A DNA stretch of 54,098 nt, from positions 1-54,098 of the forward strand of contig JAIXRO010000041.1 of assembly GCA_027485145.1 (NCBI GenBank), read 5' to 3'. The first letter of the stretch is position 1. Every line of letters starts with the position of its first letter. The stretch is from Hyphomonadaceae bacterium (lineage in GTDB: Bacteria; Pseudomonadota; Alphaproteobacteria; Caulobacterales; Hyphomonadaceae). The notes below the pieces were generated by a model that saw only the letters and a list, made by a program, of their open reading frames with translations, had not been told where the DNA came from and did no database searches. Positions 41,934 through 42,630 of the stretch are shown here, one piece after another. The translations under genes were made by a program, and so were the position numbers.

Positions 41934-41990
41934 TTCGACGATGCGCCACATTAATTTCTGAAAACAAAACAGAGCTATAAGGGCGCTCGC

Positions 41991-42010
41991 GATTCCGCCC
42001 CCGGGCACCA
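41991..42010 (+). other. Probable attR: duplicated 3' end of a plus-strand tRNA (tRNA-Phe)
   Basis: GATTCCGCCCCCGGGCACCA reads as the last 20 bases of a tRNA: GATT (T-loop end), CCGCC (T-stem), CCCGGGC (acceptor), A73 and CCA. The 5' three-quarters of the tRNA are absent. An acceptor starting GCCCGGG and A73 are typical of bacterial tRNA-Phe. A tRNA 3' end alone, next to mobile DNA, is the classic attachment-site duplication left by ICE integration. Confidence 0.75.
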
Positions 42011-42088: not shown

Positions 42089-42164
42089 TGGCTCCGTGAG
42101 CAGGACTCGAACCTGCGACCGGGCGATTAACAGTCGCCTGCTCTACCAACTGAGCTATCACGGA
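42089..42164 (-). tRNA. tRNA-Asn (GTT)
   Basis: 76 bases including encoded CCA. Read on the minus strand: acceptor TCCGTGA / TCACGGA, D-arm 'AGCTCAGTTGGTAGAGC', anticodon stem-loop GCGACTGTTAATCGC with anticodon GTT, T-loop 'GGTTCGAGTCC', discriminator G. All arms pair. Native chromosomal gene just beyond the ICE end. Confidence 0.95.
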
Positions 42165-42428
42165 ATAGCCGGAGACGGGGGCATAGCAGAGCGCGTTGCC
42201 CGTTCAAGTGCCTAAGTGCGGCGCGGGGCGAATTTCTGTGACGGGTTAACGACGGGCCGCGAAACAAAAAAATGGCGGAAGCGTGAGCTCCCGCCAAAGG
42301 CGTTGGGTGATGGTGGGTGTCTCCAAAGAAGACATGGCCACAGTCGCCCGATATGGTTAACCGCACGTTAACAAACTGGACAAATCTGAACCGGCCGCGT
42401 TTACGGCCCGCCCGTCGAGGGGGGTGCT
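42165..42428. other. Intergenic between tRNA genes
   Basis: Holds the terminator described at 42264-42296. The stretch between that and tRNA-Asn should contain the tRNA-Asn promoter on the minus strand; I cannot place the boxes with confidence. Confidence 0.4.
42264..42296 (-). terminator. Terminator downstream of tRNA-Cys and the tRNA-like gene
   Basis: Minus strand: stem TGGCGG / CCGCCA (42296-42291 and 42278-42273) followed by seven T. It ends leftward transcription from the tRNA-Cys and tRNA-like pair and separates them from tRNA-Asn, which suggests that the tRNA-like sequence is transcribed with tRNA-Cys. Confidence 0.7.
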
Positions 42429-42502
42429 TGGAGGCCCTGCCTGGAGTTGAACCAGGTAATGCAGATATTCCGTTCTGCAGCGTTCCGCTCCGCCACAGGG
42501 CC
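42429..42502 (-). tRNA. tRNA-Cys-like gene with 8-nt anticodon loop and no U33
   Basis: 74 bases with encoded CCA, the same length as the neighbouring tRNA-Cys. Acceptor GGCCCTG / CAGGGCC, D-stem GCG / CGC, anticodon stem GCAGA / TCTGC, variable ATTA, T-stem CCTGG / CCAGG with loop TTCAACT, and U73 all pair or fit perfectly. The anticodon loop is ACGGAATA, eight bases, with no T before any possible anticodon. The D-arm (GGCGGAGCGG) and U73 resemble tRNA-Cys. All stems are kept, so it is not a random relic; it should not read a normal codon. Confidence 0.75.
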
Positions 42503-42556
42503 CCATCGGATTGCCCGCAGCAACTAGCATGCCATTGCGCCGTTACAAATATGACT

Positions 42557-42630
42557 TGGAGGCTCCACCCGGAATCGAACCGGGGTGCACGGATTTGCAA
42601 TCCGCTGCGTCACCACTCCGCCATGGAGCC
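42557..42630 (-). tRNA. tRNA-Cys (GCA)
   Basis: 74 bases with encoded CCA. Minus strand: acceptor GGCTCCA / TGGAGCC, anticodon loop TTGCAAA with GCA, T-arm CCCGG TTCGATT CCGGG, discriminator U73 as expected for tRNA-Cys. It lies 54 bases upstream of the tRNA-like gene in the same direction. Confidence 0.95.

What the first reader, a model, noticed from the sequence alone, without database searches (positions are those of the whole stretch)
42429..42502. tRNA-Cys-like gene with an 8-nt anticodon loop and no U33
All four stems pair perfectly, CCA is encoded and U73 is kept, yet the anticodon loop is ACGGAATA with no U33 and an extra base. It lies 54 bases downstream of tRNA-Cys, shares its D-arm pattern and length, and is followed by a good terminator. 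Preserved stems suggest selection. It may be a frameshift-reading tRNA, a tRNA used outside translation, or a regulatory tRNA mimic.
Basis: partly seen in the sequence, partly recalled or inferred. Interest (0 to 1): 0.72.

Follow-up and report, generated by a model that had tools for sequence, protein, structure and literature searches.

The report
Non-decoding tRNA-Cys-like gene, partly conserved
Beside the normal cysteine tRNA gene of this bacterium sits a second gene that still folds like a tRNA but seems no longer able to read a codon; one related species has kept its stems unchanged and another has let it decay, so it looks like a tRNA copy kept for some job outside translation, or one on its way to becoming a dead gene.

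Summary
Window 42429-42502 (-) is a 74-nt tRNA fold (20 of 20 tested stem pairs Watson-Crick, U73, encoded CCA) with the 8-nt loop ACGGAATA and no U33. The 'good terminator' is not its own; it lies about 130 nt further on, in a CC0196-like sRNA. The gene was found in 3 of 42 genomes of the genus, one clade, between tRNA-Cys and that sRNA. The loops (ACGGAATA, ACAGAATA, GCCGGATA) lack U33 and share no anticodon in the central register; only in a shifted register do the two intact copies share GAA. Decoding is therefore unlikely, not excluded. Between the window genome and its sister the gene differs at 4/74 sites, none of 40 stem positions, against 43/149 in the two adjoining spacers (p=1.5e-5) and 72/219 four-fold sites; in the third species stems and T-loop are broken and the rate equals that of the spacers. 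So the fold seems to have stayed selected after the normal anticodon was lost, and was then dropped in one lineage. Most likely a retired tRNA-Cys-type paralogue kept as a non-decoding tRNA-like RNA (cf. Bacillus cereus tRNA-Other); a dying pseudogene is the main rival. A sister genus has its own 8-nt-loop tRNA-Cys-like gene in 5 of 7 genomes. No expression data.

The parts
42429..42502 (-). tRNA-like gene: 74 nt, tRNA fold, U73, CCA encoded
   Evidence: ARAGORN; RF00005 43.2 bits; pair count
42466..42473 (-). 8-nt anticodon loop ACGGAATA (ACAGAATA in G001, GCCGGATA in G021)
42557..42630 (-). ordinary tRNA-Cys (GCA), the only tRNA-Cys found in this draft genome (96% complete)
   Evidence: own-genome searches
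42503..42556 (-). 54-nt spacer, 13/54 different between G000 and G001; no terminator or sigma-70-type promoter found by simple scan
42334..42428 (-). downstream spacer, 30/95 different between G000 and G001; holds a TTAA-N7-TTAA site at 42357-42371
42271..42329 (-). CC0196-like sRNA (RF01519, 25.9 bits, below gathering 35) with the terminator at 42273-42296; a neighbour, not part of the tRNA-like gene
   Evidence: core sequence in 39 of 42 genus loci
42089..42164 (-). tRNA-Asn (GTT), downstream neighbour in most genus loci

Best explanation
A divergent, most likely tRNA-Cys-derived paralogue lying in tandem with tRNA-Cys. The GCA anticodon and U33 were lost before the three-species clade split (from comparison of three copies). 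Its tRNA fold then stayed under selection while the window genome and its sister diverged (statistical, one pair of genomes), and broke down in the third species (seen). The mechanism is inferred: it is read through from tRNA-Cys, cut by the normal tRNA-processing enzymes because it keeps acceptor stem, T arm and CCA, and persists as a stable RNA that does not decode. It would act by its fold, binding tRNA-handling proteins or serving as a structured or processing element of the transcript, much as tRNA-Other is proposed to work in Bacillus cereus.
For: G000 versus G001: 4/74 differences, none at the 40 stem positions, versus 13/54 and 30/95 in the adjoining spacers; Fisher p=1.5e-5 against both spacers, 0.0025 against spacer 1 alone; p=3.5e-7 against four-fold sites 72/219; stems 0/40, p=7.7e-6. 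All three copies have the enlarged loop without U33. G021 has 14 private changes, four in stems, three of 20 pairs broken, T-loop and CCA lost, and does not differ from its spacers in rate (p=0.63; p=0.20 against G001). The three carriers form one clade, 100/100. An ordinary tRNA-Cys is present.
Against: No expression data, no known target or partner. The constraint rests on one genome pair (G001 is a MAG; G000 is a 223-contig draft) and 74 bases. It weakens with other yardsticks: p=0.002 if spacer 3 (5/101) is pooled in and p=0.02 against all coding sites 171/1239; 20 of 1277 overlapping 74-nt coding windows differ by 4 or fewer. Even the decayed G021 copy is below four-fold divergence (18/74 vs 91/231, p=0.012), so spacers and four-fold sites disagree on what is neutral. 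No copy in 38 of 41 loci read, so dispensable. Position 48 is A and G001 lacks one D-loop G (sequence), which weakens tRNA tertiary contacts. No sigma-70-type promoter was found.
Confidence: 0.48

Rival explanations
1. An ordinary tRNA pseudogene: a tandem tRNA-Cys-type copy that became redundant, lost its anticodon and is decaying; the intact stems in two genomes are luck or uneven local rates.
For: Narrow range (3 of 42 genus genomes), clear decay in G021, no GCA or U33, and an Rfam score (43.2) below the 41 own-genome hits of 48.5 bits or more. Nearby spacer 3 is as conserved without being a known RNA gene.
Against: The adjoining spacers differ by 24% and 32% and four-fold sites by 33% between G000 and G001, while none of 40 stem positions differs.
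Confidence: 0.35
2. A decoding tRNA with an unusual 8-nt loop (frameshift reader, or a reader of UUY through GAA in a shifted register).
For: Full tRNA body, U73 and CCA. Functional 8-nt loops exist: yeast mitochondrial tRNA-Thr(UAG) (PMC7609411, passage). The two intact copies share GAA in one register. The draft shows no complete tRNA-Phe: 45 nt at the end of contig C41 and a 21-nt tail in the window.
Against: U33 absent in all; central triplet and 4-nt word differ in all three. G001 has the same GAA and an intact tRNA-Phe, and the C41 copy of tRNA-Phe is simply cut by the contig end. GCA, a strong CysRS identity element (PMC7609411 passage), is gone; one full-length CysRS-like gene each in 11 of 12 genomes searched, none in the 87%-complete G406.
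Confidence: 0.07
3. The conserved element acts as DNA or as a processing landmark (an integration site, or RNase P punctuation between tRNA-Cys and the downstream sRNA), not as a separate RNA.
For: It lies between a tRNA gene and a conserved sRNA; tRNA genes are common integration sites (general knowledge).
Against: Conservation coincides with the ends of the tRNA fold and changes avoid the stems; G021 and the 38 other genomes read do without it.
Confidence: 0.1

Closest known systems
tRNA-Other pseudo-tRNA of Bacillus cereus (Rogers et al. 2012, PMC3399842; abstract, passages and section 11 read)
   Same: tRNA fold, narrow species range, not used in translation, proposed to work as a tRNA-like element.
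   Different: tRNA-Other has a Trp anticodon, flanks a pathogenicity island, is expressed and has a knock-out phenotype; here the anticodon is lost, the neighbour is tRNA-Cys and nothing is tested. Sequence relationship was not tested.
   Same: tRNA-Cys-like body, 8-nt anticodon loop if read with a 5-bp stem, anticodon stem GCAGA/TCTGC in 3 of 5, U73, CCA; 0/76 different among three syntenic copies.
   Different: Keeps GCA, has A1-U72, a longer variable loop, lies elsewhere in the genome. Common origin neither shown nor rejected (AU p=0.245).
selC* tRNA-Cys (Mukai et al. 2017, as described in PMC7609411; passages read)
   Same: An extra, structurally odd tRNA-Cys-type gene with U73.
   Different: selC* has an 8/4 acceptor/T arrangement and, in some groups, partners selB* and cysS*; the window gene has 7/5 stems and one full-length CysRS-like gene was found in its genome.
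Yeast mitochondrial tRNA-Thr(UAG) with 8-nt anticodon loop (PMC7609411, passage)
   Same: 8-nt anticodon loop.
   Different: It decodes with a known anticodon; the window gene has no clear one.

Membership tests
tRNA (Rfam RF00005) by structure | covariance-model score over gathering, four-arm fold | tested here: met
   43.2 bits vs 29; 20/20 tested pairs
Functional elongator tRNA | 7-nt anticodon loop with U33 | tested here: not met
   8-nt loop, no U33 in any of three copies
Functional elongator tRNA | conserved anticodon | tested here: inconclusive
   central triplet GGA/AGA/CGG differs in all three; shifted register GAA/GAA/GGA is shared by the two intact copies
tRNA-Cys | U73 | tested here: met
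tRNA-Cys | GCA anticodon | tested here: not met
   loop ACGGAATA
tRNA-Cys | closest to tRNA-Cys by sequence and structure | tested here: inconclusive
   Model R1: tRNA-Cys 55.3 bits, C79 hit = tRNA-Leu(CAA) 37.3; pairwise 53 identities to each for G000, 52 (Cys) vs 55 (Leu) for G001
tRNA pseudogene | stems drift at the neutral rate | tested here: not met
   G000-G001 0/40 stem changes; G021 copy does drift at the spacer rate
Pseudo-tRNA with a role outside translation (tRNA-Other type) | transcript and a phenotype on deletion | not testable with these tools
   no expression or genetic data
selC* tRNA-Cys | 8/4 acceptor and T stems; in some groups partner cysS* | tested here: not met
   7/5 stems; one full-length CysRS-like gene

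The most novel reading that the evidence does not exclude
Hyphomonadaceae repeatedly, or from one old duplication, keep an expanded-loop tRNA-Cys paralogue for a job outside standard decoding: genus g3 keeps it with GCA in an 8-nt loop, and the window clade keeps only the fold after giving up the anticodon.
Probability: 0.15. Interest if true: 0.65.

Novelty: new variant of a known kind. Interest (0 to 1): 0.4.

Why it matters
Few bacterial tRNA-like genes outside decoding are described. A clade with two fold-preserving copies and one decayed copy, and a sister genus with a conserved 8-nt-loop tRNA-Cys, gives a natural series for asking when and why a tRNA leaves translation.

Tried and rejected
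Frameshift or rare-codon reading: disfavoured on loop variation and missing U33, not excluded. Phage or plasmid origin: no plasmid match and only short weak phage matches covering under half the query; of three viral contigs with the 5' 17-mer, ARAGORN found tRNA genes in one, among them a tRNA-Cys with GCA. Tandem duplication with its promoter: local similarity of the two upstream stretches is not above shuffles (142, 108 and 234 of 1000 as good in G000, G001, G021). Origin by tree: 74 columns cannot resolve it; the window copies plus g3 genes group in 62% of bootstrap trees when tRNA-Leu is in, AU p=0.245 without it; grouping with the neighbouring tRNA-Cys alone p=0.055, with the g3 tRNA-Cys p=0.368. 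CsrA-type ACGGA loop: in G000 only, ACAGA in G001 (motif recalled). A dedicated second CysRS: none seen among 12 genomes; weak partial matches lie in ORFs of about 430-1030 aa and were not identified. Wider relatives: a pattern search with up to 3 mismatches hit 2 of 398 order genomes, G000 and G021; G001 was not in that sample. The g3-type model hit 4 of 398 at E<=1e-14, 12 first-look candidates scored in each genome listed; G406 was found only. Paper searches (one search returned none) showed no description of this gene in the listed titles and abstract openings; five papers were opened (PMC8007984, PMC3399842, PMC13092985, PMC7609411, PMC9858662) in passages or sections only.

Full report
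What is there. On the minus strand of 42089-42630 lie, in transcription order, tRNA-Cys, the tRNA-like gene, a CC0196-like sRNA and tRNA-Asn. The tRNA-like gene reads GGCCCUG-UG-GCG-GAGCGGAA-CGC-U-GCAGA-ACGGAAUA-UCUGC-AUUA-CCUGG-UUCAACU-CCAGG-CAGGGCC-U-CCA. All 20 tested pairs are Watson-Crick. Free-energy folding gives a stable structure (z=-3.31), but the minimum is a long hairpin and not the cloverleaf for this copy. The G001 copy does fold into the cloverleaf, and the two ordinary tRNA-Cys folded here do not, so this says little.

Distribution. A whole-genome BLAST search of 42 genus genomes with the gene plus its 5' spacer found 3: the window genome G000, G001 and G021. I read the tRNA-Cys locus in 41 of the 42 (42 loci, G014 twice; G030 gave no tRNA-Cys match). 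ARAGORN finds no further tRNA between tRNA-Cys and tRNA-Asn in the 38 other genomes, and model R1 finds only the ordinary tRNA-Cys in their loci; in G010 the contig ends 125 nt after tRNA-Cys. Where tRNA-Asn follows within the locus, the Cys-Asn distance is 392-394 nt in the three carriers and 262-342 nt in the other genus loci. G001 matches a public pond MAG contig, 'Hyphomonadaceae bacterium isolate D1_MAG_00065'. A caveat on absence: the RF00005 search of the own genome did not list this gene although it scores over the cut-off, so whole-genome negatives alone would not be enough.

Clade and rate. A DNA tree of the stretch upstream of tRNA-Cys (41 rows) puts the three carriers in one clade (100/100), with G000 and G001 as sisters (93/71, not starred). 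G000-G001 differences: tRNA-Cys 0/74, spacer 1 13/54, tRNA-like 4/74, spacer 2 30/95, sRNA 0/68, spacer 3 5/101, tRNA-Asn 0/76; four-fold sites 30/109 and 42/110. The four changes lie in the D-loop, anticodon loop and variable loop; none is in a stem. G021 has 14 private changes including four stem positions, three of 20 pairs broken, T-loop and CCA lost; neither ARAGORN nor Rfam at gathering recognises it.

How strong. Against the two adjoining spacers the G000-G001 constraint is p=1.5e-5, and G000-G021 does not differ from those spacers (p=0.63). With spacer 3 pooled in p=0.002, and against all coding sites p=0.02. Against four-fold sites it is p=3.5e-7, but by that yardstick the decayed G021 copy is also slow (18/74 vs 91/231, p=0.012). 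So constraint is likely, its strength depends on what is taken as neutral, and it rests on one pair of genomes.

Why it probably does not decode. The loops are ACGGAATA, ACAGAATA and GCCGGATA. None has U33, the central triplet is GGA, AGA or CGG, and the 4-nt word differs in all three. In a register shifted by one the two intact copies share GAA, so a Phe-type reading is not strictly excluded; G001, however, also has an intact tRNA-Phe, and the G000 tRNA-Phe is cut by a contig end. The loss of GCA and U33 predates the clade's split; later constraint concerns the fold.

Origin. Model R1 scores ordinary tRNA-Cys at 55.3 bits and tRNA-Leu(CAA) at 37.3 in the own genome, and U73, the short variable loop and position favour tRNA-Cys. 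But pairwise identity to tRNA-Cys is only 53 of 74, with tRNA-Leu(CAA) equal (53 identities) or, for the G001 copy, ahead (55 vs 52). Five double changes and one single change relative to the neighbouring tRNA-Cys break no pair; some acceptor changes may be ancestral, since ordinary tRNA-Cys genes of other genomes carry GGCCCTG acceptors.

A second odd gene in the family. R1 over 105 family genomes found a separate second tRNA-Cys-like gene in genus g3 in G043, G058, G309, G406 and G052; G349 and G405 showed only the ordinary one, with filters that lose some weak matches. ARAGORN calls it tRNA-???. Read with a 5-bp stem it has the 8-nt loop CCTGCAAG or CCCGCAAG, keeps GCA, U73 and CCA and has A1-U72; a 6-bp stem with a 6-nt loop is equally possible and is how ARAGORN reads three of five. 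Rfam scores 42.1-46.1 bits in the three copies tested. Three syntenic copies are identical (0/76), against 50/397 and 62/397 flank differences (p=9e-5 and 8e-6). Common descent with the window gene is neither shown nor rejected.

Mechanism. Seen: fold, loss of anticodon, decay in a third species. Statistical: constraint in one pair. Inferred: co-transcription with tRNA-Cys, tRNA-type processing, persistence as a non-decoding RNA, action through its fold. The nearest described case is Bacillus cereus tRNA-Other (PMC3399842; abstract, passages and section 11 read), proposed to be a tRNA-like element in a larger regulatory RNA. Surveys may overlook such genes: one study of 42,109 genomes excluded predictions labelled pseudogene or undetermined (PMC13092985, passage).

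Verdict. A real, unusual feature with a modest claim: a probably non-decoding tRNA-like gene whose fold seems to have been selected for in at least one lineage, function unproven.

Noticed in passing
window 41990-42010 (+): The last 21 nt of tRNA-Phe, without the rest of the gene, lie where sister G001 has an intact tRNA-Phe; the first 45 nt of tRNA-Phe are at the end of contig C41 of the same genome. This suggests an element inserted at tRNA-Phe, so the left part of the window, with a CopD-like protein and a heavy-metal P-type ATPase, may be an island.
   Followed up: partly
window 42271-42371 (-): A CC0196-like sRNA (below Rfam gathering) whose core is found in 39 of 42 genus loci; a TTA(A/C)-N7-TTAA site, the CtrA-box pattern (recalled), starts 46-47 nt before the core in 9 of 42 loci, including G000, G001 and G021.
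   Followed up: partly
L136-L140 (genus g3): Conserved second tRNA-Cys-like gene with an 8-nt (or 6-nt) anticodon loop and A1-U72, in 5 of 7 genomes.
   Followed up: partly
G019, G025, G006, G100 (places): 27-nt exact copies of the tRNA-Cys anticodon arm (query 22-48) elsewhere in these genomes, and slightly diverged ones in others; possibly attachment sites of elements that target tRNA-Cys.
   Followed up: no
L024 and L025 (G034, G008): The sequence right after tRNA-Cys is unlike that of the relatives and tRNA-Asn is not found within the 1.5 kb held, as if an element had inserted at tRNA-Cys.
   Followed up: no
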